Positions 18,062 to 37,010 of a DNA stretch of 38,522 nt are shown here, one piece after another. The DNA lies in the NCBI RefSeq assembly GCF_900156675.1, contig NZ_FTOH01000016.1:1-38522 (forward strand). The letters run 5' to 3'. The notes below the pieces were generated by a model. That model made no database searches. It was given only the letters and a program-made list of their open reading frames with translations, and was not told where the DNA came from. The stretch's first letter is position 1. Every line of letters starts with the position of its first letter. This DNA is from Thalassolituus maritimus. GTDB lineage: Bacteria; Pseudomonadota; Gammaproteobacteria; Pseudomonadales; Oceanobacteraceae. The position numbers and the translations under genes were made by a program.

Positions 18062-18063
18062 AA

Positions 18064-19617
18064 ATGCATGCAAATGAATGTTTTGTAGACTTTATACTAA
18101 AGAGAGCAAATCCGGACGACGCAAAAGAGGCGATGACGTTTCAAGATGAAGCATGGTCCTATGGACGGCTTAAGCAAGAGATTGACGCCTTAAAAACAGT
18201 TCTTGTCAACAACGAAGTGCAGCCGGGTGATAGAGTCATTATTCGCATGGACGCAGAACCTATTGCCATAGCGATGTCGTTAGCGATTATGTCGTACGGC
18301 GCGATTTATGTACCCATCGCAACTGACATACCAAATGTTAGATTTCTATCCATTATTGATGCAGTGGCGCCTTCTCTAATCGTTTGCGCGCGCGATGCAG
18401 CAGAAGACTATGGTGCTGAAGAATGTATAGAACTTGATACGATAAAGCTTCATCGAATGGCGGGTAGCCCCCCTACGGATACATCGCATAACCAAGACGA
18501 TAAAGATGCCTATATCATTATGACGTCAGGTACAACTGGCGTGCCCAAAGGCATTACCATGACGCATTCGGCGGCAATCGCAGCGATAAAAGGCTACCAT
18601 GAGATGAGTATCGATGCAGATAATCGCGTGGGCAGTATCTCTCCACTGCATTTTGATTTTTGTATTTTTGATATGGCGATCACCTTTTATTTCGGTGCAA
18701 CACTTGTGCTGGTGCCTAAAATTCTGGCACATTATGCTAAGGGTTTTATTAAATATCTGAATGAACATTCCATTACACGCATGCATTCTATTCCCTCTGT
18801 TTGGCGCCCGGTATTAGATAGCTCAGATGCCAATATTTTAAACAGTTTGACAACTTTGAAATCCGTTTTATATGCAGCGGAATCGTTCCCGGTTAAGGAT
18901 TTACTTACATTACAAAGCAAGCTGCCCAATGCTGAATTTGTTCAGTCTTTTGGCCATACAGAGTCGATGGGCTGTTGCTTTAAAAAACTAAGTAACCCAA
19001 TTTGTGCACACAAAGGATGTGTTTCAATCGGTAAACCGTTGTTAAATACAGAAATGTTTGTTATCAATGACCAGGGAGATTTGGCGCAAGCAGAAGAAGT
19101 GGGTGAACTATATATCAAGGGCCCTCATCTCTTTCGCGGCTACTGGTGCAATCCAGAGCAAACAAATAGAAGCCTGGTGGCTGATCCTCGAGGGGATGAG
19201 GGCATTACCTTTAAAAGCGGCGATTTAGTTTTTCAAGATGCAAATGATGATTTTTACTTTGTTGGTCGTTGTGATCATCAGGTAAAAATAGGCGGTAATA
19301 GGATAGAGCTACCTGAGATCGATCGGGTTATCAATGAGATTAGCGATGTTTCGGCGGCGACCACCATTGTCAATGACAATGAGGGAAGAAAAACCATCGA
19401 ATGCTTTATTGTTAATAAAAGCAGTCTAGACTGGCGTGAATTCGTATTGATGGTACGCAAAAATGTATCTCAACTACTTCCCAGGTATATGATGCCTACT
19501 GACTTTTATGCAGCCCATTCTTTGCCTTTGCTTTCGAATGGCAAGGTCGATCGGTCGGTATTGAAGGATGTTAATAAAAGAAAAGAATATTTGGTTAATA
19601 AAGGAGTGTCCATTTAA
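18064..19617 (+). CDS. Free-standing adenylation domain 2
   Basis: One A domain of 517 residues, expected to load the adjacent ACP (19617). ATP loop MTSGTTGVPKG, core LHFDFCIFDM, FGHTES in place of the usual YGPTE, FKSGDLVFQ, GRCDHQVKIGGNRIEL and terminal LLSNGKVDRS are visible. The pocket read by eye, D-F-F-H-L-A-S-G-C, matches no code that I know, so the substrate may be unusual; 4-aminophenylalanine or another cluster-specific amino acid would fit the context. ATG 18064 is chosen: GGGAG lies 7 nt upstream and the KAS-like gene stops at 18061; the in-frame TTG at 18043 is less likely. TAATG coupling with the ACP gene supports a functional pair. Confidence 0.89.
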   Translation: MHANECFVDFILKRANPDDAKEAMTFQDEAWSYGRLKQEIDALKTVLVNNEVQPGDRVIIRMDAEPIAIAMSLAIMSYGAIYVPIATDIPNVRFLSIIDAVAPSLIVCARDAAEDYGAEECIELDTIKLHRMAGSPPTDTSHNQDDKDAYIIMTSGTTGVPKGITMTHSAAIAAIKGYHEMSIDADNRVGSISPLHFDFCIFDMAITFYFGATLVLVPKILAHYAKGFIKYLNEHSITRMHSIPSVWRPVLDSSDANILNSLTTLKSVLYAAESFPVKDLLTLQSKLPNAEFVQSFGHTESMGCCFKKLSNPICAHKGCVSIGKPLLNTEMFVINDQGDLAQAEEVGELYIKGPHLFRGYWCNPEQTNRSLVADPRGDEGITFKSGDLVFQDANDDFYFVGRCDHQVKIGGNRIELPEIDRVINEISDVSAATTIVNDNEGRKTIECFIVNKSSLDWREFVLMVRKNVSQLLPRYMMPTDFYAAHSLPLLSNGKVDRSVLKDVNKRKEYLVNKGVSI

Positions 19618-19877
19618 TGGAAAGGAAAGAATTCTATTCTAAGGTGATTGCCTATCTTAACGACCGTACAGATGTGCCGAGTGACTGGGCGTGGGGTGAT
19701 ACTGATAATCTATTCGACGTCGGCATTATTGAATCATTTGATTTGCCAGATCTTGTTAATAAAATTGAAGAGATAACAGGGAATGAAATTCAAGTATCTG
19801 GCTTAAAAGTTGAACATTTTTATACATTGCAAACGATGTACGACTCTATTTTACGAGATATGAGGCTATCATGCTAA
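19617..19877 (+). CDS. Free-standing carrier protein
   Basis: 86-residue acyl/peptidyl carrier. The attachment Ser is in VGIIESFDLPDLV (about residue 41), an IES variant of the usual DSL motif. It shares a TAATG junction with the A-domain gene and overlaps the P450 gene by 7 nt, so A domain, carrier and P450 are made together. This arrangement is typical where a P450 oxidises an aminoacyl group tethered to a carrier, for example beta-hydroxylation in nikkomycin and aminocoumarin pathways. Confidence 0.83.
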   Translation: MERKEFYSKVIAYLNDRTDVPSDWAWGDTDNLFDVGIIESFDLPDLVNKIEEITGNEIQVSGLKVEHFYTLQTMYDSILRDMRLSC

Positions 19878-21061
19878 ATTTAGATACACGATCAGACGCA
19901 TTTCTAACTGATCCTTGGCCAGTGCTGAAGAAATTTCGTCAAGAGGCACCAATATGCTGGTCTGAGTCCGAGAAGCTTTTTAACGTTTTTCGACACGAGG
20001 ATATTGCCAAGCTATTTCTTGATCAGCGTTTTACCGTTGAATATCCATGGCGCACAACGACACATTTGTTCGGTAAAACACTACTTGATATGGAAGGTGA
20101 AGAACAGCAACGCTTAAAGAAAATCATCGCAAGTTCGGTGTTGACAGGTATTAACGTTCGAAATTTTTCTGAAAAGTTTGTTGAACCGACTGTGATTAAG
20201 TTAATCGACGATGTTGTTTATGAGCCGAGTTTTGATTTTATGGCGGAAATTGCCAGTCGCGTACCTACCTTAGCAACCTGTCAATTCTTGGGTATTCCAC
20301 TAGATCAAGAGAAATGGTTGTTTGAAAAGATGATGGTGCTTATGAATCACTTAGGCGAAATAGAAATTAATTTCGAAGCCGTCGGCGATGTTCATAAGGA
20401 AGTTGACGAATGGTTGACCAACATTCTTGTTAATAAGTTTGAACAAAAACAAGAAGACCTGGGCTATATGCAAATGTTCGACTGCGTGCGTGACGAGTCT
20501 ATGGAAACGATTAAACTTGTTTACTGGACATTTCTCGCCGGGGGCATTGAAACTTCAATGTGCTTATTAGGCAACGCATTTGTGATTTTGTCCAACCATC
20601 AGGAGTGGTTCAAACGATTGGCAGAAGATAGTTCCATGGCGCGCTTAATCCTCAATGAAGCGCTACGTCTTGAGCCTGTGCAAGGAAATACGGTTAGATT
20701 TGCCACACAGGACCTTGATCTAAATGGTATTTCCATTAAGAAAAATCAATGTGTAAGGTTGTTGTTAACCAGTGCGAGTCGGGATGAAAGTGTTTTTCAG
20801 GAACCTGATGTTTTTAATCCTGAACGTTCAACCCGCAAGCGGGATTTAACGTTCGCTATAGGGACTCACGCATGTATGGGGCGTAACTTTACCCTGACTA
20901 ATTCTGAAATAGTGCTCAGAACATTTTGGAAAAAAATACAGGGTGTTCGTGACATAGATAAAATTGATACTGTTATTAGAGGCTCACTGTTTCGTAAGCC
21001 CGATTCAGTTTGGGTTAATTCGAAAATAAATACTGTTAAAGATTGTTGTTTACAAGCATAA
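19871..21061 (+). CDS. Cytochrome P450, probably acting on carrier-bound substrate
   Basis: Bacterial class I P450 of 396 residues, no membrane anchor. The I-helix motif reads LAGGIETS (about 222-229, Glu in place of the usual Asp). The ExxR motif is EALR near 262, and the heme loop FAIGTHACMG near 328-337 has the ligand Cys. It depends on outside ferredoxin and reductase; none is encoded here. Overlap with the preceding ACP gene suggests that the ACP-tethered amino acid is the substrate, with hydroxylation at C-beta or on the ring as the simplest outcome. Oxidation of a hydrazine cannot be excluded, since heme enzymes act in N-N chemistry elsewhere. Confidence 0.92.
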   Translation: MLNLDTRSDAFLTDPWPVLKKFRQEAPICWSESEKLFNVFRHEDIAKLFLDQRFTVEYPWRTTTHLFGKTLLDMEGEEQQRLKKIIASSVLTGINVRNFSEKFVEPTVIKLIDDVVYEPSFDFMAEIASRVPTLATCQFLGIPLDQEKWLFEKMMVLMNHLGEIEINFEAVGDVHKEVDEWLTNILVNKFEQKQEDLGYMQMFDCVRDESMETIKLVYWTFLAGGIETSMCLLGNAFVILSNHQEWFKRLAEDSSMARLILNEALRLEPVQGNTVRFATQDLDLNGISIKKNQCVRLLLTSASRDESVFQEPDVFNPERSTRKRDLTFAIGTHACMGRNFTLTNSEIVLRTFWKKIQGVRDIDKIDTVIRGSLFRKPDSVWVNSKINTVKDCCLQA

Positions 21062-21076: not shown

Positions 21077-21988
21077 ATGATTAACATTAGCTGCATTAAC
21101 TATACATTAGGTGACTCAAAACCCATAACCGAAATTCCTGAATTGGCGGGTGATGATGAAGGAGCAAAGTTTCTTCTCGATAGAGGGTTTAAAAATTTTA
21201 GAAGCTATGATGGCGAGCCATGGCAGGTGGGTGTCGATGCGGCTAAGAAAACTTTAGAAGAAGCTAAGTTTTCGCCAGCAGATATCGATCAGGTGGTTTA
21301 TGCTTCAATCAGTTCTAAAAACCCGATGATTGGGGATTTAGGGGTTGGGCTTTTTGCAAACGCGATGAACATGTTGGAAACGCCTATCGCTGGTGTTTGC
21401 TTTGGTGAGTGTACAAATTCCATGTTGGGATTGGAGTACGCCACTATGTTGGTAGAAACCGGGCGTGCGCGAAATGTGCTATTAGTTTCTACAGATGTTG
21501 CATGCAGTAAAGAACAACGTATGACCAGTGGCTATACCATATGCTCAGATGGTGCGGCGGCGTGCATCGTGTCAAACGAGCGTCATGGTGAAGGTTATTC
21601 ATTTGAGCTGGTGAAATTTCAAAAAGCATATCATCATTTATCCAGAGCCGGCTTGTCCAATCCGGGGCAAGCATTTCGGGATATCGCCAAAGCAGCTTCT
21701 TTTTGTAAAAGCACAGTTACCAAAGAATTTACTGGTAAAATATCTAAGTGGATACCCAATACGGGCAATACTGAAGTTGCCGGTGCATTTGCAAGCGTAC
21801 TAGGTATACCGTTAAAAGACTATTACTTGGATAATTTGGCAGATTATGCCCACTTGTTCTCCACGGATCAACTGGTCAATCTTATTGACTGGGCGAGTCG
21901 TTCTAACATTGCCGATGGTGAATATGGTTGTGGTATTGCTACTGGGTTATCAGGCAGTTGTTCGGCGTTGTGGCGAGTTAGATGCTAA
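21077..21988 (+). CDS. Divergent KAS III-like protein 2 (thiolase fold)
   Basis: 303-residue paralogue of the 17123 protein. Both begin with a similar PEL-x-GD segment. Cys112 in FGECTNSMLG is the presumed nucleophile. As in the first copy the HQAN motif is gone (IPNTGN near 226-231), and His259 and Asp264 (YAHLFSTDQL) occupy the same residue numbers as in the paralogue. The two may form a heterodimer or act at successive steps. It is followed by a free ACP gene at 22046, a likely acyl donor or acceptor. Start ATG 21077 has AAAGGA upstream. Family assignment is firm; reaction is unknown. Confidence 0.85.
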   Translation: MINISCINYTLGDSKPITEIPELAGDDEGAKFLLDRGFKNFRSYDGEPWQVGVDAAKKTLEEAKFSPADIDQVVYASISSKNPMIGDLGVGLFANAMNMLETPIAGVCFGECTNSMLGLEYATMLVETGRARNVLLVSTDVACSKEQRMTSGYTICSDGAAACIVSNERHGEGYSFELVKFQKAYHHLSRAGLSNPGQAFRDIAKAASFCKSTVTKEFTGKISKWIPNTGNTEVAGAFASVLGIPLKDYYLDNLADYAHLFSTDQLVNLIDWASRSNIADGEYGCGIATGLSGSCSALWRVRC

Positions 21989-22045: not shown

Positions 22046-22294
22046 ATGAACAGTATGTTTGATGTCGTTGAGCATAAATTACATAGCTTGGTGCCGACGA
22101 TAGATTCAATAAGTGCTGAGATGAAGTTGCAGGATGATTTACATTTGTCATCACTTGCTCTTGTGTCGTTACTTACTACGCTTTGCGATCAGTTTGGCGT
22201 TGATTTATTAAAGCTGACAGATGCAGATCTCCTAAATTTGGTATCAGTAGAAGATGTAGTGAATTTGTTTGAAAGATATTCAAGCAAATCTTAA
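22046..22294 (+). CDS. Free-standing acyl carrier protein
   Basis: 82-residue ACP. The phosphopantetheine Ser lies in DDLHLSSLALVSLL (about residues 35-36; two adjacent Ser, the one aligned with DSL being more likely). AAGGAA precedes ATG 22046 at a good distance. It sits between the second KAS III-like gene and the hydrazine cassette, and is a candidate carrier for hydrazinoacetate, since triacsin and azaserine routes also process hydrazinoacetate on a carrier. Which of the five adenylating enzymes loads it is not visible. Confidence 0.84.
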   Translation: MNSMFDVVEHKLHSLVPTIDSISAEMKLQDDLHLSSLALVSLLTTLCDQFGVDLLKLTDADLLNLVSVEDVVNLFERYSSKS

Positions 22295-22320: not shown

Positions 22321-23637
22321 ATGATATACGACTTAGTAGGGATCGGCGCCGGTCCGTCAAATCTCAGTTTGGCGGCACTGTCTCCTAAACACCTTAACGC
22401 AATGTATATTGAACGAAGACCTGAATTTTCATGGCACAAAGGCATGGAATTTAGCTTTGCAGATTTACAGGTGAGTTTTGTTAAAGATCTGGTGACATTA
22501 GCAGACCCAACCAATGAGCATTCATTTCTTAACTATCTTCACACCAACGGAAAGCTATATCATTTTTTGAATGCCCAGTTTCAAAGTGTTTCCAGGAAGG
22601 AGTATGCCGACTATTTTAAGTGGGTGTCACAACGTCTAGATAATATTTTAATGAGTGAATGTGTGCTAAGTGTGAATTTCGATGAAGATTTCATTGTTGA
22701 AACCGATAAGCGAACATTGAGAAGTAAGAATATTTCCGTGGGTGTTGGCAAAGTTCAATATATACCAAGTTTTGCCAGACCGTTGTTAGGTAATAATAAC
22801 TTTCACGTCTCGCAATATAAGTATAATGACCATCAACTGGCGGGCAAGAAAATTATTATCGTTGGTGGTGGTCAATCTGGCGCCGAAGCTTTTTATGATT
22901 TGATATCAAGAGATAAAGATGATGCAGTGAAGCAGGTGTATTGGATTACGCGACGCGATAATTTTTTACCTATCGATGACTCGCCGTTTACAAATGATCT
23001 TTTTATGCCTTGTCAAGTAGAGTATTTGCAACAATTTAGTTACAGCAAGAAAAAAGAATATGTTAGAAAAAATATATTAACGAGTGACGGCATCTCCGGC
23101 AAGACCTTAAACGATATTTATCAATTACTGTATAGATACCAGTTTCTGGAAGATAATCCTTTGGAATTTAAATTAATGCCTAGTCGTAGCGTTGAGGGGT
23201 TAACAAAGATCGGTACCAAATGGTTGGTTAACTCCCGACATCTGGAATATGAAGTCGATGAGCACTTTGAAGCAGACGTGATTATTTGGGCAACGGGTTT
23301 TTGTGATGGGCCGAAAAATTTTCTGCGGCCCATAGATCATAAGCTTGAAAAGGTTGGGGTTGGCGAAGAATATATGGTCGATAATGACTACTCTGTTGTC
23401 TGGAATGGGCCCAAAGATCGAAATATTTTTATGCTTAACTCAGTGAAAAATCAAAAAGGGTTGTCTGATCCCAATCTTAGTTTAACGGCATGGCGTAGCA
23501 GGAAAGTGCTTGACCGAATTGAAAATAAGGCATGCCAGCAAGTTGCTAATAAGTCGCTTGTAGAATGGAATCCTATTCAAGAAATTGAACCCTTTGTTGA
23601 ACAGGGCCTGATTCGAGAAGCTAAAGCGTCTATTTGA
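22321..23637 (+). CDS. L-lysine N6-hydroxylase (flavin N-monooxygenase, IucD/Spb38/Tri26 type)
   Basis: Predicted to make N6-hydroxylysine using FAD, NADPH and O2, the first step of hydrazinoacetate formation. The 438-residue protein has the N-terminal FAD motif GIGAGPSNLSLAAL, the family block MEFSFADLQVSFVKDLVTL, the NADPH motif IVGGGQSGAEAF near 181, DDSPFTNDLFMP, and the late ATGF motif. All are typical of siderophore-type ornithine/lysine hydroxylases. Siderophore use is unlikely: no hydroxamate acyltransferase or IucA/IucC synthetase is present, while the next two genes complete a hydrazine pathway. Lysine rather than ornithine is inferred from those neighbours. Start ATG 22321, AAGGA about 9 nt upstream. 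Confidence 0.92.
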   Translation: MIYDLVGIGAGPSNLSLAALSPKHLNAMYIERRPEFSWHKGMEFSFADLQVSFVKDLVTLADPTNEHSFLNYLHTNGKLYHFLNAQFQSVSRKEYADYFKWVSQRLDNILMSECVLSVNFDEDFIVETDKRTLRSKNISVGVGKVQYIPSFARPLLGNNNFHVSQYKYNDHQLAGKKIIIVGGGQSGAEAFYDLISRDKDDAVKQVYWITRRDNFLPIDDSPFTNDLFMPCQVEYLQQFSYSKKKEYVRKNILTSDGISGKTLNDIYQLLYRYQFLEDNPLEFKLMPSRSVEGLTKIGTKWLVNSRHLEYEVDEHFEADVIIWATGFCDGPKNFLRPIDHKLEKVGVGEEYMVDNDYSVVWNGPKDRNIFMLNSVKNQKGLSDPNLSLTAWRSRKVLDRIENKACQQVANKSLVEWNPIQEIEPFVEQGLIREAKASI

Positions 23638-23648
23638 AAGGTTAGTCA

Positions 23649-24662
23649 ATGAAGTATGACATTGTCATTATCGGCGCGGGTATTCAAGGCTTAATTATTG
23701 CACGAGATATCTTGGCGCGGTGCACTGATATTTCTCTTATGGTTGTGGATATGAAGTTGCCGGGCTTAGGGGCAACCGGCTACTCTGCGGGCTATGATAT
23801 ACCGGGCGGACGTACAGCACTTATTAAAGAAATGAGCGAATATTCGCAAGAATATTATCAGCAGTTCTTGAACGATGAGTGCGGGTATTATCCGGTTAAA
23901 ACCTATATACATAGCCACAGTGATGCGAAGTTGTCGTATTTTAATGCGGGTAAGTATGCTGAGGTCTCGGCGCCTGTTGAGGATAACTTCTTGTCGCATT
24001 ATCTTAAAACATGGCAATGTTCAAGTTGTTATCGTGGGGATTTGCATGTAATTACGCAACAAATTACGCGTAGTTTGGGCGATGCGCTAGAGATTATCGA
24101 GGGGCATTTTGTCGAAAGTATTGACGAGAATGATCGCGGAATCCACATTAAATTTGCGGGTGGGCGTTTAGTGCAAGCGTCATACTGTATAATGTGTCCA
24201 GGACCGTGGGTTAACTCACCTTCGTTTGCTAAATATACCGCCCCACTTAATATCGAAATCAAAAAGATCGTGGCCTTTCATGTCGCATGGCCAGTGTCTA
24301 TTAATAGCGCTGCACATTATTTTACTGATGATGATGCTTTTTTGTTGCCATTGTTAGATAAACAGTATTGGCTCTATAGCTATACCTGCCAAACTTGGGG
24401 GGTTGATCCACAAGGGCTTCTCTATGTCAGTGCCAGCGATATTGATACAGGAAAGTCGATTTTGGAGAAATATTCGCTAACGATGAGTCAGCTGGTACAT
24501 TCCGGACGCGCGTTCTGCGATGCGTATAGCCCGCACAGAGAACCGGTTGTTGATTATGTGAATTCTAACAAATCTATTGTGTTTGCCGGTGCGTCTAACG
24601 GGTCGGGTTTCCGCTTGGCACCCGCGATATCCAAAAAGGTTGTAGAACTTTTAAACTTTTAA
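23649..24662 (+). CDS. DAO-family FAD oxidase, probably releasing hydrazinoacetate (Tri27 type)
   Basis: D-amino-acid-oxidase/glycine-oxidase fold of 337 residues. The FAD Rossmann motif IIGAGIQGLIIARDI is at 7-21, with a VVDMKLPGLGATGYSAG segment after it and the C-terminal FAD loop FAGASNGSGFRLAPA near 317. In the hydrazine pathway this type of enzyme oxidises N6-(carboxymethylamino)lysine, splitting it into hydrazinoacetate and 2-aminoadipate 6-semialdehyde. It lies 11 nt after the hydroxylase and 16 nt before the cupin-MetRS gene, the same trio as in the triacsin cluster. Substrate assignment rests on this neighbourhood; on sequence alone it is a generic amine oxidase. Confidence 0.87.
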   Translation: MKYDIVIIGAGIQGLIIARDILARCTDISLMVVDMKLPGLGATGYSAGYDIPGGRTALIKEMSEYSQEYYQQFLNDECGYYPVKTYIHSHSDAKLSYFNAGKYAEVSAPVEDNFLSHYLKTWQCSSCYRGDLHVITQQITRSLGDALEIIEGHFVESIDENDRGIHIKFAGGRLVQASYCIMCPGPWVNSPSFAKYTAPLNIEIKKIVAFHVAWPVSINSAAHYFTDDDAFLLPLLDKQYWLYSYTCQTWGVDPQGLLYVSASDIDTGKSILEKYSLTMSQLVHSGRAFCDAYSPHREPVVDYVNSNKSIVFAGASNGSGFRLAPAISKKVVELLNF

Positions 24663-24678
24663 TTTCGAGAGTGTAAAC

Positions 24679-26682
24679 ATGAAGAAGGCTGAATATGGTG
24701 TTAACGGATTCGAAGAGGCATTTAATATTTTGTGCTCGCATAGCGATGAAGTATACGGCGAAATACAAATAGCATGGGGTGTTGTGGAGCCTGGGCACAC
24801 GTCACAACCGCATCAGCATAGCGAAAAAGAAGTCTATATTATTATTTCGGGTAATGGTTTTGCGCATAGTCGCAACGAAGAGTTCTCGGTAAAGGCGGGC
24901 GATATTATTTTAATTGATCCGCTTGAGACGCACTACTTGAGTAATAATAGTGATACACCGCTCGTAGTTGCAGACCTGTATTGGCATGCAGGTAGCAGCG
25001 AATTAAACGTTATTCAGGCTAACAAGGCAAATAATCTTGATACACCGATATTCGTTTTTTCACCGCCACCAACACCAAATGGTGATTTACATTTAGGCCA
25101 TTTGTCGGGGCCTTATTTGGGTGCGGATGTTTATAAACGCTTTGAACGCATGCGCGGTAGAAAAGTATTTCATCTTACGGGTAGTGACGATTTCCAGAGT
25201 TATGTGCGTTCATTGGCTGAAAAATCGCAGGGTTCAGAATATGAAGTCGCCTTGCAGTACTCGGATGCGATACGTCATACATTGGATTTGTTCGATGTGG
25301 AATATGACAACTTTTTATGTACGTCAACCGATGAGCCTTACAAAGTGTATATGCAGGCGCAATTTAATGCGCTGAGAGAATATTTAGACTATGTCAAAGG
25401 ACCATCGCTCTTTGACGCAACGACAAACCAGTATTTGTATGAAGTTGATGTAAGAGGGGAATGCCCAACGTGTGGCTCGGATGGCAACGGCAATATTTGT
25501 GAACAATGTGGTGCGCCGAATACCTGTGTTGATTTAAAAAATAGTTTTTCAAATATCACTAACACGAAAGCACAGCATGGTGAGAGTGAACGTTTTAGCC
25601 TCGCGCTCCATCGTTACTATCAGGTGATTAGAGACCACTTGGATCAATCGAAGTTGTCACCACGCGTGAGAGTATTGGTAGAAGATATTTTAGCGCGCGA
25701 AACATTTGATTTACCGTTAACCCATCTGGAAAAATGGGGCGTTAAGGTAGGTGATCAAAAATACGATGATCAATCCATTTGGGTATGGGTGAATATGTTT
25801 TTTGGTTTTATGTATGCCATTGACTGTTTAGGTAAAAGGCAAGGCGAGGATTGGTCTGAGCCGAGTGATGACTGGAAGATTGTTCACTTTTTTGGTTTTG
25901 ATAATAGCTTTTATTATACCGTTTTATATCCGGTTTTATTTAAACTTGCCTATCCATCTTGGAAGACGCAGGTTGATTATAATTACAATGAGTTTTATTT
26001 GCTTGAACACAAGAAGTTTTCGACCAGTCGCAGGCATGTTATTTGGGGTAAAGAGATTCTGAACCACCACACAACAGATATCATCAGATATTTCCTATCA
26101 AAGACACGATCCGAATACGATCAAACAAATTTTGATCTTTCAGAGTTACTGGCTGATATAGAGTCAACCCTTATTAATAAGTGGGAAAACTGGACCGCAG
26201 CGTTGCAACAAAAAGTGAAGAATGACTTTGCTGGTGTAACGCCTTCGACAGGACTATGGATGCCTGAGTATGGTGCTTATGTAGATTCCCTAGCATCAAA
26301 ACTGCAACAAATTTCCGTTTATTATACTAGCGAGAATTTTTCTCTGCGCGCTGCGATTAAAGCTATTGATAGTATCGTTGATGATGTGATCAGTTTTTCC
26401 GCCTATTGCAACGCACTTAAAACAAGTGAAAATTTTCATAGTTACTACAGAACCGTAGTGGCCCTTGAAGTGTCTACCTTAAAAGCGCTGGCCGAGGCTG
26501 TGTATCCGGTGATGCCACGATATTCAAAACACTTATTAACACTGTTAGGTATGTCAGAAACACCAACATGGCCAGATAAAGTCACGTTGCTAGACGGCGG
26601 CATTCAGATGGATGTGGAGAGCGGCAATTATTTTGCTGAAGGATACAGTTTAATTAAGCAATATAGATCAGGCAGGGCTTAA
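24679..26682 (+). CDS. Hydrazine synthetase: cupin-MetRS-like fusion (Spb40/Tri28 type)
   Basis: Key N-N bond-forming enzyme. Residues 1-105 form a cupin with metal-ligand pattern PHQH (His45, His47), Glu51 and His85. From about 120 the protein is a methionyl-tRNA-synthetase-like catalytic domain: HLGH (138-141) is the HIGH signature, a zinc knuckle CPTC/CEQC lies near 262-276 and KFSTSR near 446-451 stands for KMSKS. By the known Spb40/Tri28 reaction it activates glycine with ATP and joins it to N6-hydroxylysine; the cupin then rearranges the ester to N6-(carboxymethylamino)lysine with an N-N bond. A housekeeping MetRS has no cupin, and the C-terminal tRNA-binding part seems short. Start ATG 24679, weak GAGAG upstream. 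Confidence 0.94.
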   Translation: MKKAEYGVNGFEEAFNILCSHSDEVYGEIQIAWGVVEPGHTSQPHQHSEKEVYIIISGNGFAHSRNEEFSVKAGDIILIDPLETHYLSNNSDTPLVVADLYWHAGSSELNVIQANKANNLDTPIFVFSPPPTPNGDLHLGHLSGPYLGADVYKRFERMRGRKVFHLTGSDDFQSYVRSLAEKSQGSEYEVALQYSDAIRHTLDLFDVEYDNFLCTSTDEPYKVYMQAQFNALREYLDYVKGPSLFDATTNQYLYEVDVRGECPTCGSDGNGNICEQCGAPNTCVDLKNSFSNITNTKAQHGESERFSLALHRYYQVIRDHLDQSKLSPRVRVLVEDILARETFDLPLTHLEKWGVKVGDQKYDDQSIWVWVNMFFGFMYAIDCLGKRQGEDWSEPSDDWKIVHFFGFDNSFYYTVLYPVLFKLAYPSWKTQVDYNYNEFYLLEHKKFSTSRRHVIWGKEILNHHTTDIIRYFLSKTRSEYDQTNFDLSELLADIESTLINKWENWTAALQQKVKNDFAGVTPSTGLWMPEYGAYVDSLASKLQQISVYYTSENFSLRAAIKAIDSIVDDVISFSAYCNALKTSENFHSYYRTVVALEVSTLKALAEAVYPVMPRYSKHLLTLLGMSETPTWPDKVTLLDGGIQMDVESGNYFAEGYSLIKQYRSGRA

Positions 26683-26716: not shown

Positions 26717-27271
26717 GTGAAACATCTATATGAAGCAATAACGCCCAGGCTGAAGAGTTTTATAGAGCGGCAAAAGATGTTTTTTGTCGCTACCTCGCCA
26801 CTATCAGAAGATGGGCATATCAACCTTTCACCAAAAGGATATAATACATTTAGAGTATTGGATTCAAAAACAGTTGCCTATTTAGACTTATGTGGTAGTG
26901 GTGTCGAAACAATTGCCCATGTCAAAGAAAATCGACGGATGGTAATTATGTTTTGTGCATTTGAAGGGCCACCAAAAATTATTCGTTTATATGGAAAAGC
27001 AAGTGTTATTGCGCAGCACTCGAATGAATATAAGAGGCTTATACCTATATTTCCAGAGTTTACGGGCCTGCGCGCCATTATTAAATTAGATGTTACGCGC
27101 GTTTCTGGCTCGTGCGGTTTTTCTGTTCCTTTGTATAAATACGAAGGTGAGCGCGACCAATTGGAAGATTGGGCCAAGGCGAAAGGTAAAGACTGGTTAA
27201 CGAAGTACCAAGAAGAAAATAATTTATTCAGTATCGATAATCTCGGTGCGTTAGATGAAAGTGATTTGTAA
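26717..27271 (+). CDS. PNPOx-like split-barrel flavoprotein
   Basis: 184-residue protein of the pyridoxamine-5'-phosphate-oxidase-like superfamily (FMN-binding split barrel). It shows FFVATSPLSEDGHINLSPKG near 21-40, TVAYLDLCGSG and NRRMVIMFCAF, typical of the uncharacterised COG3576-type group. Such proteins bind FMN, F420 or heme and act as oxidoreductases. In this place, between the hydrazine synthetase and an acyl ligase, it might oxidise a hydrazine to hydrazone or azo state, but that is conjecture. Start GTG 26717 with GGAG 8 nt upstream; the gap from the synthetase gene is 34 nt. Confidence 0.82.
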   Translation: MKHLYEAITPRLKSFIERQKMFFVATSPLSEDGHINLSPKGYNTFRVLDSKTVAYLDLCGSGVETIAHVKENRRMVIMFCAFEGPPKIIRLYGKASVIAQHSNEYKRLIPIFPEFTGLRAIIKLDVTRVSGSCGFSVPLYKYEGERDQLEDWAKAKGKDWLTKYQEENNLFSIDNLGALDESDL

Positions 27272-27297
27272 ATATTTTAATGAAGAGACCCAATATT

Positions 27298-28785
27298 ATG
27301 AATGCAGATTACGTGAACAATATTATCCCACGACTTTCTAGTAGCAGTGTTAAGCTACACTTTTTTGAGAATGGCGAGCATGTTGTATATGATGCAAAAG
27401 CGATTAAGCGCGATATCGCGCGTACAATTGAACTGTTTCAAAAACACGGATTAAAACCAGGTATGCGTATTGGCATTGTTGGTGCTAATAGCTATGAATG
27501 GGTTATTGTTGATTTAGCCTGTCTTGCCTATGGTTTGCTTTCTGCGGGTATGGATGCCGCCGCAGGTCATGATATCGATAGAATTGTCAGCGAGTGTGAT
27601 ATCGATTTTGTATATTATCTCGATAAAGACGAGCAACTGAATAAACATTTTGATAAGTCTGCTTCCCATGATGAAGTTGAATTGTCAATTGATCCTCACC
27701 GCTATGATGGTAAGGAAGCAATTGGATTAAAGTTCACTTCCGGATCGACAGGTCACGTTAAAGCGATGATGCTGCGCTCTACCAGCGTGAGCGATACACT
27801 CACAAATGTTCAAGCTATGTTTAATCACCAACCTGGTGATAATATACTTATCTTTCTTCCACTTTATCTTTTCCAACAAAGGTTTTGGATTTATTCGGGG
27901 ATTTTATTTGATCACGATGTGATTGTTGTGCCTTACCGGTTTGCGATTACCGCCATGCAGCGTCTGAATCCCTCTGTGGTCATGGGGGTGCCTGAGTTTT
28001 TTGAACGCTTGGTGCAAGACATCGATGCCCATGATGAGCAATGTAAATTGGCGTTTAATAGCTTGTTAGGAAACAACATTCGCTATTTGTGGAGTGGATC
28101 TGCGCCTTTATCAGAAGATGCGTTGGATAAATATAAACAGTTAGGCATACCGCTATACCAAGGGTATGGAATGAACGAGACGTGTATCATCGCCAAGAAT
28201 TATCCAGGTAATAACCGAGTGGGTAGCGTGGGCAAAGTGGTTCCATCTAAGAGCGTACTGCTCGAAGGGTCCGGCCAAATATTGGTGCGCTCTAAACACG
28301 CGGTAACCGATGGTTATCTGAACGTAAGCGAAGAGGAAGGCCGCCAGGTGTTTCGCGAAGATGGCTATGTCGCCACGGGCGATATCGGTTATTTAGACGA
28401 AGACGGTTATTTGTATATCACTGGAAGAATAAAAGATTTAATTGTTTTGTCGACTGGTAAAAAAGTAGCACCTGTGCCAATTGAAAAATCTCTGGAGGGG
28501 ATGGCGGTAATAGAAAGGGCGGTGGTGTTTGGTAGCGGCAAACACTATTTAACCGCTGTATTGCAGCGTAAATCCTCATCAGTGTCGACTGATGAAATTA
28601 AGTTAGCGGTAACAGAGTCAGGTCGAAATCGTGTTGCCGATGAGCGTGTGCACAAATATATTGTATGTGATGAGCCGATGTCCCAGGAAAATGGATTGTT
28701 AACATCTCAGTTTAAAGTAAAACGAGACGCAATTTGGGAAAGATATGGAGATGAATTATTGGCTTTATATGAGTCCGCGAATTAA
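27298..28785 (+). CDS. Acyl-AMP ligase / acyl-CoA synthetase-like enzyme
   Basis: ANL enzyme of the long-chain acyl-CoA synthetase type, 495 residues from ATG 27298. Motifs: LKFTSGSTGHVKAMML, YQGYGMNET, ATGDIGYLDEDGYLYITGR and DLIVLSTGKKVAPVPIE. ATG 27298 is preferred over in-frame ATG 27280 because GAAGAG lies 10 nt before it and nothing suitable before 27280. Located right after the hydrazinoacetate cassette, it may activate hydrazinoacetate for transfer to an ACP, as the ligase of the triacsin pathway does, or a fatty acyl group for the product. It is the last gene before a terminator at 28929. Confidence 0.88.
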   Translation: MNADYVNNIIPRLSSSSVKLHFFENGEHVVYDAKAIKRDIARTIELFQKHGLKPGMRIGIVGANSYEWVIVDLACLAYGLLSAGMDAAAGHDIDRIVSECDIDFVYYLDKDEQLNKHFDKSASHDEVELSIDPHRYDGKEAIGLKFTSGSTGHVKAMMLRSTSVSDTLTNVQAMFNHQPGDNILIFLPLYLFQQRFWIYSGILFDHDVIVVPYRFAITAMQRLNPSVVMGVPEFFERLVQDIDAHDEQCKLAFNSLLGNNIRYLWSGSAPLSEDALDKYKQLGIPLYQGYGMNETCIIAKNYPGNNRVGSVGKVVPSKSVLLEGSGQILVRSKHAVTDGYLNVSEEEGRQVFREDGYVATGDIGYLDEDGYLYITGRIKDLIVLSTGKKVAPVPIEKSLEGMAVIERAVVFGSGKHYLTAVLQRKSSSVSTDEIKLAVTESGRNRVADERVHKYIVCDEPMSQENGLLTSQFKVKRDAIWERYGDELLALYESAN

Positions 28786-28988: not shown

Positions 28989-29573
28989 GTGGTGTTTGAG
29001 CAAATCGTGTTGGAAGACGACAAAGTTATTATGCGTCCTATGTCAATTGAGGATACTAAAGGTTTCTCGTCAATTGCTTTCGATGAAGATCTTTGGCGTT
29101 ATTATGTGATGAAGTTATCTAGCGATCTTGAATTGGCAAATTATATAGTTTCATCGATAGAAGAAAATAAAGCCGGACGCCAGCATGTATTCACCATCAT
29201 CGATAAAGCGACAGGCTTGATTGTCGGCAGCACAAGCTTCGGCAATATTTCTTTGAAGGATAGGCGGGTTGAAATTGGCTGGACTTGGCTTGGCAGAAAA
29301 TTTCAAGGAACGGGTATAAATGATCACTGCAAATATCTATTGTTAGCGTACGCGTTTGAACAGGCGGGCATGCTTCGCGTCGAATTTAAAACCGATGTGT
29401 TAAATTTAGCAGCAAGAAACGCCTTAAAGAAATTTGGGGCAACGGAAGAGGGCATATTGCGGTCACACACGTTGATGCAAGATGGTAGACGGCGCGATAC
29501 TATTTATTATTCCGTATTGGCATCTGAGTGGGATGATGTGAAATCTAAGCTAATTAAAAAAATAGCGATGTAA
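28989..29573 (+). CDS. GNAT N-acyltransferase (RimJ/RimL type)
   Basis: 194-residue GNAT of the Acetyltransf_3/RimL type. It has an N-terminal VIMRPMSIEDT strand, EIGWTWLGRKFQGTGI (acyl-CoA pyrophosphate loop, about 96-111) and a NLAARNALKKFGATEEG motif, followed by the aromatic DTIYYSVLASEW ending of the family. It transfers an acyl group from CoA to an amine. GTG 28989 and GTG 28992 are both possible; AAAGGA ends at 28984, so 28992 has slightly better spacing. Followed 24 nt later by a C45-type amidase, it could place a temporary acyl group on a hydrazine or arylamine that the amidase removes. Self-resistance is the alternative. Confidence 0.87.
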   Translation: MVFEQIVLEDDKVIMRPMSIEDTKGFSSIAFDEDLWRYYVMKLSSDLELANYIVSSIEENKAGRQHVFTIIDKATGLIVGSTSFGNISLKDRRVEIGWTWLGRKFQGTGINDHCKYLLLAYAFEQAGMLRVEFKTDVLNLAARNALKKFGATEEGILRSHTLMQDGRRRDTIYYSVLASEWDDVKSKLIKKIAM

Positions 29574-29597
29574 TTTGTGAGTGTTGGTCTGGTATCT

Positions 29598-30662
29598 ATG
29601 AGTATACAAATAGTAGAATTATCGGGAACGCCCTATCAACGGGGAAAGCAATACGGTATTGCCGTTAGAGATGAAATAAATAAGTATTTAAACGATGGCT
29701 TCTTAAGAGTTAATCGGATTAGGACACAGGCGCTGAGCATCTCAGCAATGAATGAATGTCTGGAAACCTATTTAGACGTACTTAAAGACAAAGTCCCTGA
29801 TTTATTATTAGAACTGGAAGGGTTGGCGGATGGTGCGGGGATTACGCGCTTGCAGGCGCTGGCGTTCCAATATCGGCGCGAACTTATCGGTATAAATGCA
29901 CAACCCGATTCACAGAAGGTTGTAGGGGATTGCACGACATTTGCGGTGAATGCGGATAACAGCCACTTGTTAGGACAAACGGTCGATCAAGATGGCTTGA
30001 TATCTGAGTTTGCAACGGTATTGAAAATAAAGTCAGCTGATCCTGCTGCCCCAGAAATTCTGATGTTTAGTTTTGTCGGCATGCTTGGCTATTTGGGAAT
30101 CAATAGCTTTGGCGTGGGTGTTTGCATTAATCTGCTGACGACAAACGTGGTGGCTAAAGGTGTATCGCCTTATCTTCTGGTGCGCGAGATGCTTAATTGT
30201 CGGTCTGCTGAAGAGGCGGTAGCGCGCATTCGCAAGCTGCCAAAAGCAACAGCCAGAGCATTTACGATTGTCGATAAATTTGGTATCACCTGTTGCGAAT
30301 TTACGACGGATAGTTTTTATAGTTGGCAGCCCGAGGGTGACTTTTTCAGAGCAAACCACTTTTTGCATAGCGCGTTAATTCCGGATGATCGTCTTAATAT
30401 ATTCAGTAGAAATGGATCGTTAAAGCGCCAAGAGCTTATGGCACAGGGTATTCGGAAAGAAGGTACTTCGGTCGATGCGTGTTTTAGCGTATTTTCAGAT
30501 CACTCATTATTTCCCGTGGGATTGTGCGCACATGCGCAGGGGGATTATAGGCGACCGGATACTGTGGCGGCCGTGATGTTAAACCCCAGTGAAGGCACGT
30601 TATGGGTATGTAAAGGGCATCCATGTGAGTCTCAGCCTGTTCGATTTCAAATTGGTTGTTAA
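29598..30662 (+). CDS. C45-family Ntn-hydrolase (acyl-CoA:6-APA acyltransferase-like)
   Basis: 354-residue protein of the penicillin acyltransferase-like family, whose members self-cleave before a Cys that becomes the N-terminal nucleophile. Here GDCTTFAVNADN places the cleavage before Cys112. ELSGTPYQRGKQYG at the start and LLGQTVDQDG are further family marks. No signal peptide, so probably cytoplasmic. These enzymes hydrolyse or exchange amide bonds. ATG 29598 starts at the conserved N-terminus; an earlier GTG at 29577 would add seven residues with no clear ribosome site. Together with the upstream GNAT it suggests an acylate-then-deacylate step, or final N-acylation of the product. Confidence 0.85.
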   Translation: MSIQIVELSGTPYQRGKQYGIAVRDEINKYLNDGFLRVNRIRTQALSISAMNECLETYLDVLKDKVPDLLLELEGLADGAGITRLQALAFQYRRELIGINAQPDSQKVVGDCTTFAVNADNSHLLGQTVDQDGLISEFATVLKIKSADPAAPEILMFSFVGMLGYLGINSFGVGVCINLLTTNVVAKGVSPYLLVREMLNCRSAEEAVARIRKLPKATARAFTIVDKFGITCCEFTTDSFYSWQPEGDFFRANHFLHSALIPDDRLNIFSRNGSLKRQELMAQGIRKEGTSVDACFSVFSDHSLFPVGLCAHAQGDYRRPDTVAAVMLNPSEGTLWVCKGHPCESQPVRFQIGC

Positions 30663-30718: not shown

Positions 30719-31846
30719 ATGGAACCAAGTAACACACAATCTAACGTTTCGGCTGTTATTGTGCAGCAGTCTTCGAGCGATCCCAAGCTTGATGCAAACA
30801 ACGCAAAGCAAGAGACGCCTCAACAGCAAAAAAAGTCGAAAGGCTCTATTCTGCTAAGCTTGGCGATCGTGACCCTTTTAGCAGGTCTTTATTACTACTT
30901 TACTAGCTATCAATACATCGAGTCCACAAACGATGCTTATGTTAAGGCGGATTTAACGTGGATTAGTCCAAAAATTGAAGGCAATGTGTTAGAGATTTTG
31001 GTTGACAATAATGAAGTCGTTAAGCAAAGCCAAATGCTTGTCAAGATTGAAGATGATGAAATTTCCGTGCGTAAGGAAATTGCAGAGGCCAATCTGCGCG
31101 GCAGTTTGGCGGCTTTAAAAATGCAGGAATATGAACGGGTTCAAATTTTATCCGAGCTAGAGCGTGCAAAGGCACATATTCGGGTAGCGGAAGCGGAATA
31201 TAGTCGGATGAAGCTTGAGCTGGAAAGATACGAAGTGCTGTTAAGTCATGGTGTAACGAGTCGACAAAATTTTGAACTGATCAGCAGTCAGTACAGTGTC
31301 GCCAGTGCGAATGTTGCGGCCGCTGTTGAAGAAATGCGTGCCGCTGAAGCCAGGCTGTTAAGAATTAGCACCGCGAGTAATCAAACGCAGGCGGAAATTG
31401 ATGCCGCTGAGGCGAATATCAAGCTTCTCACCATCGATAAAACCTCAACCTCTATTGTTGCGCCCGTTGCCGGGGTGGTGGGTAATTTGGAATTGGAAAC
31501 GGGGAGTCGTGTTTTTCCTCAATCCCGTTTGTTGGCCATTGTACCCCAGGGTTCTGCGTATATCGAGGCTAATTTCAAGGAAACACAAATACACCGTATG
31601 TCGATAGGTCAGCAAGTGAAGGTTAAGATAGATGCTTATCCAGGCCGAGTTTTTGATGGCCATATTGAGAGTTTTTCGCCGGCCGCAGGCATTGAGTTCG
31701 CCATTATTCCGGTTGATAACGCAACCGGGAACTTTAATAAAATTGTGCAACGTATTCCGGTTAAGATACGCGTAGATAATATTGACGCTAAAGTGATGTT
31801 ACGACCAGGATTGTCGGCCATTGTCACTGTGGACACACGTCAATAG
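30719..31846 (+). CDS. EmrA/HlyD-type periplasmic adaptor (membrane fusion protein)
   Basis: Periplasmic adaptor of a tripartite MFS pump, 375 residues. A polar, Gln-rich N-terminus of 40 residues precedes a single membrane anchor (about 43-60, ILLSLAIVTLLAGLYYY). STNDAYVKADLTWISPKIEG is the typical first beta-barrel/lipoyl strand. Long heptad-rich helices (about 120-230) form the hairpin, then VAPVAGVVGNLELETGSRV returns to the lipoyl domain. It lies 25 nt before the EmrB-like gene. Together with the outer-membrane factors at 35630 and 37011 it should export the cluster product across both membranes. Confidence 0.93.
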   Translation: MEPSNTQSNVSAVIVQQSSSDPKLDANNAKQETPQQQKKSKGSILLSLAIVTLLAGLYYYFTSYQYIESTNDAYVKADLTWISPKIEGNVLEILVDNNEVVKQSQMLVKIEDDEISVRKEIAEANLRGSLAALKMQEYERVQILSELERAKAHIRVAEAEYSRMKLELERYEVLLSHGVTSRQNFELISSQYSVASANVAAAVEEMRAAEARLLRISTASNQTQAEIDAAEANIKLLTIDKTSTSIVAPVAGVVGNLELETGSRVFPQSRLLAIVPQGSAYIEANFKETQIHRMSIGQQVKVKIDAYPGRVFDGHIESFSPAAGIEFAIIPVDNATGNFNKIVQRIPVKIRVDNIDAKVMLRPGLSAIVTVDTRQ

Positions 31847-31871
31847 TTCTATTTATTAAGAGTTTGCAAGC

Positions 31872-35015: not shown

Positions 35016-35522
35016 ATGAATATAGCAAAAACAATGTTTAAAATTGCACCCGTAGAATGCTTGGAGGTGGATGATGCGACGTTATCTGATTTACTTAATG
35101 AAGTATTCGTTAATGGTGGATTCACTTCAGCGGAGATAGCACCAAAAATCTTTAACCCAGCGAAGGTCAGGGAGCGAGGCTTCATTGTTGGTGTATTCGA
35201 TGAGTCGCAAACTGCATTGGCCGGTATTATCATTGTTGTGCCACCGGGTTCATCTGCCCAGCGCTTAGCGCAGGGGGGGGAGGCTGAATTGCACTTGTTA
35301 GCTGTTCTACCTCAATATCGTCGGCAAGGTATTGGTCGCTTACTTGTGAGTGCAGGCATAGAAAAGTCGATCGAGATTGGCTGTAGCAAGTTAATCTTGT
35401 GGACACAGCCGGCGATGACAGCTGCGCAGCGCTTGTACGAATCATTGGGGTTTGTTTTTGTTCGTAATATGTCCCAAGAAGGCCGTGAGTTCAAAGTGTA
35501 TGAACGTGCATTGGCGTTATAG
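35016..35522 (+). CDS. GNAT-family N-acetyltransferase
   Basis: 168-residue single-domain GNAT. ELHLLAVLPQYRRQGIGRLLV is the strand-4 and acetyl-CoA loop (Q/RxxGxG/A, about 92-111), and AAQRLYESLGFVFVR is the C-terminal motif. Its type (small-molecule acetyltransferase) differs from the RimL-like GNAT at 28989. It lies between the flavoprotein and the outer-membrane factor genes, near the export genes, so inactivation of the product in the cytoplasm (self-resistance) is a reasonable guess. ATG 35016 has only a weak ribosome site. Confidence 0.85.
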   Translation: MNIAKTMFKIAPVECLEVDDATLSDLLNEVFVNGGFTSAEIAPKIFNPAKVRERGFIVGVFDESQTALAGIIIVVPPGSSAQRLAQGGEAELHLLAVLPQYRRQGIGRLLVSAGIEKSIEIGCSKLILWTQPAMTAAQRLYESLGFVFVRNMSQEGREFKVYERALAL

Positions 35523-36937: not shown

Positions 36938-36981
36938 TTCGTTGGAAATTGCAAGATGAACAAAAATTTTCACCCATTCAA

Positions 36982-37010
36982 AATAGCCTAAGGCTGTTGG
37001 AGTCGCTTAG
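36982..37010 (+). repeat. Leader repeat copy 2 with dyad AGCCTAAGGCT and RBS
   Basis: Second copy of the leader at 35601-35629: dyad AGCCTAAGGCT (36985-36995), GGAG (36999-37002) and an 8-nt spacer to ATG 37011. Confidence 0.7.

What the first reader, a model, noticed from the sequence alone, without database searches (positions are those of the whole stretch)
22321..26682. Complete hydrazine-forming (hydrazinoacetate) cassette in a Gram-negative NRPS cluster
Seen: IucD-type hydroxylase, DAO-type oxidase and a cupin-MetRS-like fusion with cupin ligands, HLGH and KFSTSR motifs, in three adjacent genes with 11- and 16-nt gaps. Known: this trio (Spb38/Spb40 in s56-p1, Tri26-28 in triacsin) makes hydrazinoacetate from lysine and glycine. 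Inferred: the cluster installs an N-N bond. The surrounding thiotemplate genes do not match any cluster I know, so a new hydrazine, hydrazone, azo or diazo natural product is likely.
Basis: partly seen in the sequence, partly recalled or inferred. Interest (0 to 1): 0.9.

Follow-up and report, generated by a model that had tools for sequence, protein, structure and literature searches.

The report
Divergent hydrazinoacetate cassette without its dehydrogenase
A Gram-negative bacterium carries a probably imported gene cluster that very likely joins two nitrogen atoms to make a hydrazine building block for a small-peptide pathway; the chemistry is known, but this version is unusually divergent, lacks one usual enzyme and sits beside genes that point to an unknown product.

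Summary
The genes at 22321-26682 encode an N-hydroxylase, a DAO-type oxidase and a cupin-MetRS hydrazine synthetase with intact zinc-ligand, HLGH and KFSTSR motifs. Its MetRS-like part matches the PyrN synthetase better than any tRNA synthetase found and does not group with the host's own MetRS. So the surroundings match known logic in part. What differs: the dehydrogenase that makes the hydrazone there is absent from the window and, as a close homologue, from the genome; a PNPOx-type flavoprotein gene lies in the operon. The six cassette proteins compared rank first to third in divergence in their sets, and the synthetase has Asn where 87 of 87 relatives have Glu. Genes for 4-aminophenylalanine and a PaaK-cysteine desulfurase pair beside a Cys-type NRPS suggest an undescribed product. 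New variant of a known kind. Substrates, step order and product are inferred; nothing was assayed.

The parts
22046..22294 (+). Free-standing carrier protein (82 aa), AzsQ/DobQ-like; start 22046 or 22055
   Evidence: PP-binding 21.8 bits, cut-off 20.8; 39% identity over 76 aa to the stand-alone ACP of the S. meliloti cluster, E 2.6e-12
22321..23637 (+). Flavin N-hydroxylase (lysine N6-hydroxylase type; AzsL/Tri26/DobG-like)
   Evidence: PF13434 E 1.3e-93; 46-49% in the best eight of 86 matching loci
23649..24662 (+). DAO-type FAD oxidase (AzsM/Tri27/Spb39-like), expected to release hydrazinoacetate
   Evidence: PF01266 E 4.9e-21; 33-36% in the best eight of 74 matching loci
24679..26682 (+). 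Cupin-MetRS di-domain hydrazine synthetase
26717..27271 (+). PNPOx-type FMN flavoprotein; candidate stand-in for the missing dehydrogenase (inference)
   Evidence: PNPOx_N 39.8 bits, cut-off 28.1; no match at E 1e-6 in 87 hydrazine synthetase loci; homologues to 53% identity elsewhere
27280..28785 (+). Adenylase, AzsP/DobC-like
   Evidence: PF00501; 39% to the S. lavendulae homologue, E 9e-100
28989..29573 (+). GNAT, AzsS/DobB-like (succinylates hydrazinoacetate there)
   Evidence: 49-51% in the best eight of 69 matching loci; 47%, E 1.3e-60 to the S. lavendulae one
29577..30662 (+). C45 autoproteolytic hydrolase, AzsT/DobA-like
   Evidence: NF040521 199 bits, cut-off 85; 32% over 355 aa, E 4e-49
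17123..18061 (+). KASIII-like protein 1, AzsD-like trans-acyltransferase candidate
   Evidence: AzsD-type S. lavendulae protein hits it at E 7e-12 in a search of the window alone; Cys kept, the His of the aligned LHxN motif not kept
21077..21988 (+). KASIII-like protein 2, AzsD-like trans-acyltransferase candidate
   Evidence: E 1.8e-12 in a search of the window alone; Cys kept, the His of the aligned LHxN motif not kept
12996..17126 (+). NRPS: TubC-type docking, Cy-like, A (Cys-like code), PCP, TE
   Evidence: Pfam domains; code DLFNFSLIWK; first Asp of the Cy motif replaced
12730..12999 (+). Carrier-like small protein (89 aa, GGYSL), assigned by eye
   Evidence: ORF; no Pfam match
11483..12709 (+). 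SufS-like cysteine desulfurase with catalytic-type Cys (GHLCAQP)
   Evidence: TIGR01979 397 bits, below its cut-off 475; 45-46% to SufS-like neighbours of the same PaaK-like gene
10081..11430 (+). PaaK-like adenylase, paired with 11483
   Evidence: no Pfam match at E 0.001; 39-41% to PaaK-like genes next to SufS-like genes
6922..8484 (+). Free-standing amino-acid adenylation enzyme
8481..10130 (+). PCP-condensation protein
18043..19617 (+). Free-standing amino-acid adenylation enzyme
19617..19877 (+). Carrier-like small protein (86 aa, FDVGIIES), assigned by eye
   Evidence: ORF; no Pfam PP-binding match
19871..21061 (+). Cytochrome P450
   Evidence: PF00067 E 4.9e-22
3759..5918 (-). Fused aminodeoxychorismate synthase (PapA-type)
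   Evidence: TIGR00553 358.6 bits, cut-off 328.4
3472..3756 (-). Chorismate mutase (PapB-type)
   Evidence: PF01817 E 2.5e-19
2580..3488 (-). Prephenate dehydrogenase-like (PapC-type)
   Evidence: PF02153 and PF20463 above cut-off
1180..1935 (+). Phosphopantetheinyl transferase
   Evidence: PF01648 E 1.7e-18
30719..33446 (+). HlyD-type adaptor and MFS exporter
33539..34975 (+). FAD/NAD(P)-binding oxidoreductase, role unknown
   Evidence: PF13454 E 5e-27
35016..35522 (+). Second GNAT, possibly self-protection (inference)
35630..38288 (+). Two tandem outer-membrane efflux proteins, 61% identical

Best explanation
The genes at 22046-30662 make hydrazinoacetate and turn it into a carrier-bound thioester. 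The hydroxylase converts lysine to N6-hydroxylysine. The MetRS-like domain esterifies its oxygen with an amino acid (most likely glycine) and the zinc cupin rearranges the ester to an N-N bond. The DAO-type oxidase cleaves off hydrazinoacetate. The GNAT caps the hydrazine with succinate, the adenylase loads it on the carrier protein at 22046, and the C45 hydrolase removes the cap. The KASIII-like proteins then move the unit towards the NRPS stations. Because the usual acyl-carrier dehydrogenase is absent, the unit is either passed on as a hydrazine or oxidised by another enzyme, with the PNPOx-type protein as first candidate. Shown here: homology, catalytic motifs, gene order, and absence of the dehydrogenase from the window. 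Inferred: every substrate, the step order and the product.
For: Trio confirmed. The MetRS-like part matches the PyrN MetRS-like domain best by sequence (E 9e-53 to 9vq4 and 1e-52 to 9l8v, next 1.7e-41) and by predicted fold (9l8v, TM 0.92 by target length, rmsd 2.3; MetRS chains among the 50 listed reach 0.84). Tree: inside the synthetases, apart from the host MetRS. Adenylase-, GNAT- and C45-type genes occur together beside 58 of 87 related synthetases, among them loci from species known for azaserine, triacsin and Dob products (L041, L084, L059, L051, L058 by title). The carrier at 22046 matches their stand-alone carriers. The biochemistry of those enzymes is in PMC13061610 (section 8 read) and PMC10445470 (passages).
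Against: The window is a long branch (2.26) and ranks 1 to 3 in departures from near-invariant columns in all six cassette proteins compared. Its synthetase has N372 where 87 of 87 loci have E and F374 where 86 of 87 have S or A, so glycine and even activity are not secure. No assay exists. The KASIII relation is weak (21-29% identity to the AzsD-like ORFs) and the aligned His of most relatives is not kept.
Confidence: 0.75

Rival explanations
1. The synthetase joins N6-hydroxylysine to an amino acid other than glycine, or uses a different hydroxylamine, giving a hydrazinoacetate analogue that the equally divergent downstream enzymes have co-evolved to accept.
For: Pocket columns depart from the family: P371V, E372N, S/A374F. 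The downstream adenylase and C45 are the most divergent of their sets (22 of 111 and 23 of 80 near-invariant columns). Relatives using Ser, Ala, Tyr and Glu are reported (PMC8664883 section 12).
Against: W370 is kept as in 87 of 87 loci, while the Glu-using PyrN has Ala there in the alignment. The GNAT, which sees the hydrazine, is 49-51% identical to those of other clusters in its best eight matches.
Confidence: 0.18
2. The PNPOx-type flavoprotein replaces the AzsF/DobM dehydrogenase and oxidises the carrier-bound hydrazine to the hydrazone. (This can be true together with the best explanation.)
For: It lies between the synthetase and adenylase genes. AzsF-type dehydrogenase is absent from the window (best E 0.05) and the genome's best-scoring homologue is 26% identical. 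PNP oxidase itself oxidises a C-N bond (recalled).
Against: The protein belongs to a broad family with relatives up to 53% identical, the closest one seen in a non-cluster setting, and was found in 0 of 87 synthetase loci. No solved homologue, and its model was unusable.
Confidence: 0.3
3. The cassette is decaying or inactive in this genome, since the whole set is divergent and transposase-like debris lies in the divergent promoter region.
For: A 123-nt inverted repeat with transposase-like remnants, read by eye, at 5981-6402; strong divergence.
Against: The cassette and NRPS frames are open and tightly packed, and the metal-ligand and HIGH/KMSKS columns are intact.
Confidence: 0.08

Closest known systems
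Azaserine (azs/aza) and N-nitroglycine (nng) clusters
   Same: Hydroxylase, oxidase, synthetase, adenylase, carrier, GNAT, C45, a KASIII-type protein and a docking-Cy-A-PCP NRPS
   Different: Window lacks the AzsF dehydrogenase and AzsE-type oxidase, has a PNPOx-type protein, two KASIII-like proteins, 4-aminophenylalanine genes and a PaaK-SufS pair; its synthetase has no C-terminal carrier domain
Dob (4-diazo-3-oxobutanoate) and triacsin clusters
   Same: Most of the same hydrazinoacetate activation block
   Different: No DobM/Tri22-type dehydrogenase; no PKS domain among the window ORFs scanned. Dob3 itself was not searched for
S. meliloti pSmeSM11b cluster (L004, product unknown to me)
   Same: One of the nearest synthetases (43.6%; L014 reaches 45% over its best segment) and the nearest stand-alone carrier (39%)
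   Different: Has an acyl-CoA dehydrogenase and an iron-containing redox enzyme gene; other NRPS genes
V. coralliilyticus pOCN014, K. pneumoniae pC696_1 and Nonomuraea gerenzanensis clusters
   Same: Adjacent PaaK-like and SufS-like genes (39-41% and 45-46%) with a Cy-A module of Cys-like code
   Different: No match above 60 bits to the hydrazine cassette in the fetched stretches
Thiotetronate (thiolactomycin) sulfur insertion
   Same: Cys-type Cy-A-PCP-TE, a P450 and a cysteine desulfurase in one pathway (PMC5518548, passages)
   Different: There the desulfurase locus is separate and paired with a thiouridylase-like gene; no PKS domain in the window

Membership tests
Cupin-MetRS hydrazine synthetases (Spb40/Tri28/PyrN) | Cupin fused to a MetRS-like domain | tested here: met
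Cupin-MetRS hydrazine synthetases (Spb40/Tri28/PyrN) | Zinc-cupin residues incl. the catalytic Glu (RHS1 D63/H65/E69/H103 set) | tested here: met
   H45, H47, E51, H85; H at the first as in 79 of 87 relatives
Cupin-MetRS hydrazine synthetases (Spb40/Tri28/PyrN) | MetRS part closer to synthetases than to housekeeping MetRS | tested here: met
Cupin-MetRS hydrazine synthetases (Spb40/Tri28/PyrN) | ATP-dependent N-N bond formation | not testable with these tools
   needs enzyme assay
Cupin-MetRS hydrazine synthetases (Spb40/Tri28/PyrN) | My own extra check, not a published defining feature: Glu at the column of N372 | tested here: not met
   E in 87 of 87 loci; PyrN also has E in the alignment
Hydrazinoacetate trio | Adjacent lysine-type N-hydroxylase and DAO-type oxidase | tested here: met
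   lysine itself inferred
Hydrazinoacetate trio | Glycine as amino-acid partner | tested here: inconclusive
   W370 kept, but E372N and S/A374F
Azaserine/triacsin/Dob hydrazone-thioester block | GNAT, adenylase, carrier and C45 hydrolase | tested here: met
Azaserine/triacsin/Dob hydrazone-thioester block | AzsF/DobM/Tri22-type dehydrogenase | tested here: not met
   so I do not file it as a full member, only as working like it up to the desuccinylated thioester
Azaserine-type cluster | AzsE-type iron-containing oxidase | tested here: not met
   absent from the window (best E 1.1); not searched genome-wide
Azaserine-type cluster | AzsD-type KASIII transferase | tested here: inconclusive
   two weak homologues, E 1.8e-12 and 7e-12 in a search of the window alone; Cys kept, aligned His not
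Azaserine-type cluster | AzsO-type NRPS with active Cy domain | tested here: inconclusive
   same architecture plus TE; first Asp of DxxxxDxxS replaced; higher scores to other Cy-A modules
4-aminophenylalanine (pap) pathway | Aminodeoxychorismate synthase, free chorismate mutase and prephenate dehydrogenase together | tested here: met
   logic of the pathway recalled
Thiotetronate-type sulfur insertion | Dedicated desulfurase acting with a Cys-loaded PCP | tested here: inconclusive
   genes present; function untested

The most novel reading that the evidence does not exclude
The cluster fuses hydrazine chemistry with sulfur delivery. A divergent synthetase with a changed amino-acid pocket makes a hydrazino acid. 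A PNPOx-type flavoenzyme, not an acyl-ACP dehydrogenase, sets its oxidation state. KASIII-like shuttles bring it to a Cys-charged NRPS whose degenerate Cy domain and partner desulfurase use the PCP-bound cysteine as a sulfur source. 4-Aminophenylalanine supplies an arylamine. The result would be a sulfur- and hydrazine-bearing natural product class exported by a Gram-negative.
Probability: 0.15. Interest if true: 0.8.

Novelty: new variant of a known kind. Interest (0 to 1): 0.52.

Why it matters
Enzymatic N-N bond formation is a young field. This version of the hydrazinoacetate block is among the most divergent in the sets compared (60 to 87 rows per protein). It keeps homologues for succinylation, loading and desuccinylation but lacks the dehydrogenase, so it makes directly testable whether the hydrazine can be used unoxidised or by another flavoenzyme. 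The order of desuccinylation and oxidation differs between reports (PMC13061610 section 8). The neighbouring genes predict a compound combining a hydrazine, an arylamine and cysteine-derived sulfur; the rows listed by my open-access searches showed no such report.

Tried and rejected
Housekeeping MetRS as the identity of 24679-26682: rejected. Gram-negative occurrence as the novelty: rejected, since 23 of the 80 loci kept (of 357 confirmed relatives) are proteobacterial by title. AzsO orthology of the NRPS: not upheld. Its best plasmid-collection scores are to Nostoc modules (607 and 606 bits); modules beside other PaaK-SufS pairs score 512, 506 and 494 by tblastn; NRPSs of the synthetase loci reach at most 439 by blastp. 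First genome-contig scan with one protein found no relative; the second, allowed by the stated rule, used an alignment and worked. The PNPOx-type protein modelled from one sequence gave pLDDT 33 and was not used. The host could not be named; a 16S search found none in the assembly. Three paper searches around the PaaK-SufS pair, its host clusters and sulfur insertion (1, 2 and 10 rows listed) showed no paper on the pair. PADLOC gave nothing for three proteins. Rfam gave no match at gathering score. The 123-nt inverted repeat was considered as a switch, but both arms are its only copies in the genome and it overlaps transposase-like debris.
Full report
Observation. Pfam gives Lys/Orn monooxygenase, DAO, and Cupin_2 plus tRNA-synt_1g, all above their cut-offs. 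The window is G000:C26:1-38522 of a 3.86 Mb genome in 30 contigs. Its GC is 40-46% in 2-kb steps; five loci from other contigs of the same genome have 52-54%. The synthetase is in 1 of 9 genomes searched in the genus, 1 of 293 in the order (both E 1e-60) and 1 of 398 in the phylum at a strict 1e-150, each time only the window's own genome. This points to horizontal acquisition (inference).

What the 24679-26682 protein is. Against the PDB it matches the chains 9vq4 (E 9e-53) and 9l8v (1e-52) best, then an archaeal MetRS (1.7e-41). The molecules are named methionine-tRNA ligase there, but the entry title of 9l8v is the PyrN C-terminal domain with a glutamyl-adenylate analogue. 5UQP, which is RHS1 according to PMC8664883 section 10, matches the cupin part (E 1e-4). 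A model from 22 sequences (pLDDT 82, pTM 0.80) is closest to 9l8v (TM 0.92 by target length, rmsd 2.3; MetRS chains among the 50 listed reach 0.84). In a tree of 89 rows (88 different) the window lies inside the synthetases and away from the host's own MetRS, on a long branch of its own (2.26); the tool warns that the exact place of so long a branch is unsure. A five-protein tree with 65 loci joins it to an uncultured Pseudovibrio locus, flagged as a possible long-branch join. PMC8664883 (abstract; sections 8, 10 and 12 read) gives the mechanism: the MetRS-like domain makes an O-aminoacyl hydroxylamine and the zinc cupin rearranges it.

The larger block. Of 382 candidate stretches in named genomes 357 encode relatives and 80 were kept; with 7 plasmid loci I compared 87, of which L008 and L070 are one plasmid under two accessions. 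The adenylase, GNAT and C45 hydrolase of the window all have homologues in 58 of 87 (bit thresholds 150, 50 and 60). These are the counterparts of DobC, DobB and DobA (PMC13061610 section 8) and AzsP, AzsS and AzsT (PMC10445470, passages found by term). Two KASIII-like proteins resemble AzsD, which moves the hydrazone unit between carriers in azaserine synthesis: the AzsD-type protein of S. lavendulae hits them at E 1.8e-12 and 7e-12 in a search of the window alone. The active-site Cys is kept in both, but the His aligned with LHxN in AzsD and most relatives is not; a second His (GHC or AH) is kept by eye. AzsD-like ORFs over 240 aa lie within the stored flank in 19 of the 87 loci.

What is missing. 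No AzsF-type dehydrogenase or AzsE-type oxidase is in the window (best hits E 0.05 and 1.1). The genome's best-scoring dehydrogenase homologue is 26% identical (E 5e-20) and none of the 12 matches lies on the window's contig. Of the 58 loci with adenylase, GNAT and C45, 49 have the dehydrogenase within the stored flank. Of the nine others, six have a homologue of 47-88% identity somewhere in their genome (the 88% one, for L013, with a stop codon inside), L072 has none at E 1e-40, L015 was not held and L076 was not tested. Five further loci have adenylase and GNAT without C45 or dehydrogenase; of their genomes one (L018) holds a 45% dehydrogenase, three hold only 30-37% ones and one has none at E 1e-40. 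So the absence is uncommon, not unique. In the operon of the window a PNPOx-type protein (26717-27271) stands between synthetase and adenylase. It has no match at E 1e-6 in the 87 loci but relatives to 53% elsewhere. PNP oxidase oxidises a C-N bond (recalled), so it is the natural suspect, but nothing here tests that.

Divergence. Leave-one-out counts of near-invariant columns (at least 95% of the other rows) put the window first to third in departures for all six proteins: hydroxylase 8 of 94 (third of 86 rows), oxidase 7 of 52 (first of 75), synthetase 28 of 188 (second of 87), adenylase 22 of 111 (first of 70), GNAT 12 of 58, one of them a gap (second of 69), C45 23 of 80 (first of 60) (rows covering under 75% of the query were dropped). 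In the synthetase the stretch aligned with the MetRS methionine pocket reads WVWVNMFFGF. E372 of 87 of 87 relatives is N, S or A at 374 (86 of 87) is F, and P371 (84 of 87; two others also have V) is V; W370 is kept as in 87 of 87. In the alignment PyrN, which uses Glu, has A at 370, E at 372 and A at 374. I read this as favouring a small amino acid but leaving glycine unproved.

Surroundings. The minus-strand genes are a fused aminodeoxychorismate synthase (TIGR00553 above cut-off), a chorismate mutase and a prephenate dehydrogenase-like protein, which together are the 4-aminophenylalanine set (recalled). The NRPS at 12996 has a docking domain, a Cy-like domain, an A domain with code DLFNFSLIWK, PCP and TE. 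That is near the Cys code (DLYNLSLIWK, recalled) and near the AzsO-type DLWNMSLIWK. The first Asp of the Cy motif is replaced, while the AzsO-type Cy domains and those of the three PaaK-SufS clusters keep it. The genes before it, PaaK-like 10081 and SufS-like 11483, form a pair also found side by side in V. coralliilyticus, K. pneumoniae and Nonomuraea (39-41% and 45-46%). Thiotetronate synthesis uses a Cys-type Cy-A-PCP-TE, a P450 and a cysteine desulfurase (PMC5518548, passages), and the paulomycin cluster has a KASIII-like acyltransferase and a desulfurase (PMC4425429, passages). This is why sulfur delivery is my boldest reading; it is inference.

Literature. Searches for hydrazine synthetase or cupin plus MetRS, hydrazinoacetic acid, aminophenylalanine with hydrazine, and hydrazinoacetic acid with Gram-negatives listed known N-N papers among others; in the 15 of 26 rows listed the word aminophenylalanine has zero occurrences, and one search listed 15 of 2,413, mostly off topic. 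The library holds open-licence papers only. PMC11705231 (review, passages) lists characterised synthetases, including Por11 of Pseudomonas, so Gram-negative members are known; PMC13274452 (abstract and passages) describes the N-nitroglycine cluster.

Verdict. A real, divergent member of the synthetase family in a block that works like the known one up to the desuccinylated thioester, with an unusual gene complement. The N-N step is likely; the partner amino acid, the oxidation state of the nitrogen unit and the product remain open.

Noticed in passing
window 10081-12709; L096 17989-20503; L097 17989-20489; L100 15001-17444: A PaaK-like adenylase next to a SufS-like desulfurase occurs in the window and in three other NRPS clusters; the two plasmid ones are alike in gene order and also carry a serine O-acetyltransferase gene. 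It looks like a sulfur module that I could not find described.
   Followed up: partly
window 5981-6103 and 6280-6402: A 123-nt inverted repeat, 98% complementary, in the divergent region between the pap genes and the main operon; these two arms are its only copies found in the genome, with transposase-like debris by eye.
   Followed up: partly
window 85-543: Insertion-sequence remnants at the contig start: an rve-type integrase piece (85-411) and a piece at 447-543 that matches three Acinetobacter records at 81.6%, two of them annotated IS256-like there.
   Followed up: no
window 35630-38288: Two outer-membrane efflux proteins in tandem, 61% identical, downstream of an HlyD-MFS pair.
   Followed up: no
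L072, L076 (Xenorhabdus): Azaserine-like blocks with NRPS, adenylase, carrier and C45, but no AzsF-type dehydrogenase in the stored stretch, and none at E 1e-40 in the searched genome of L072.
   Followed up: partly
L011, L024 (Chromobacterium): Hydrazine synthetase clusters with adenylase and GNAT homologues but neither C45 nor AzsF-type dehydrogenase found within 10 kb.
   Followed up: partly
L005 11829-17001 (Mesorhizobium plasmid): A hydrazine synthetase without a DAO match lies near nif genes, with a phytanoyl-CoA dioxygenase-like gene between hydroxylase and synthetase; ten rhizobial loci in all, this one included, had no DAO match.
   Followed up: no
L099 3221-12915 (Nostoc plasmid pn4): A small cluster with cupin, FAD oxidoreductase, acyl-CoA dehydrogenase, NRPS and a KASIII-like protein that matches the window's (22.9%).
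   Followed up: no
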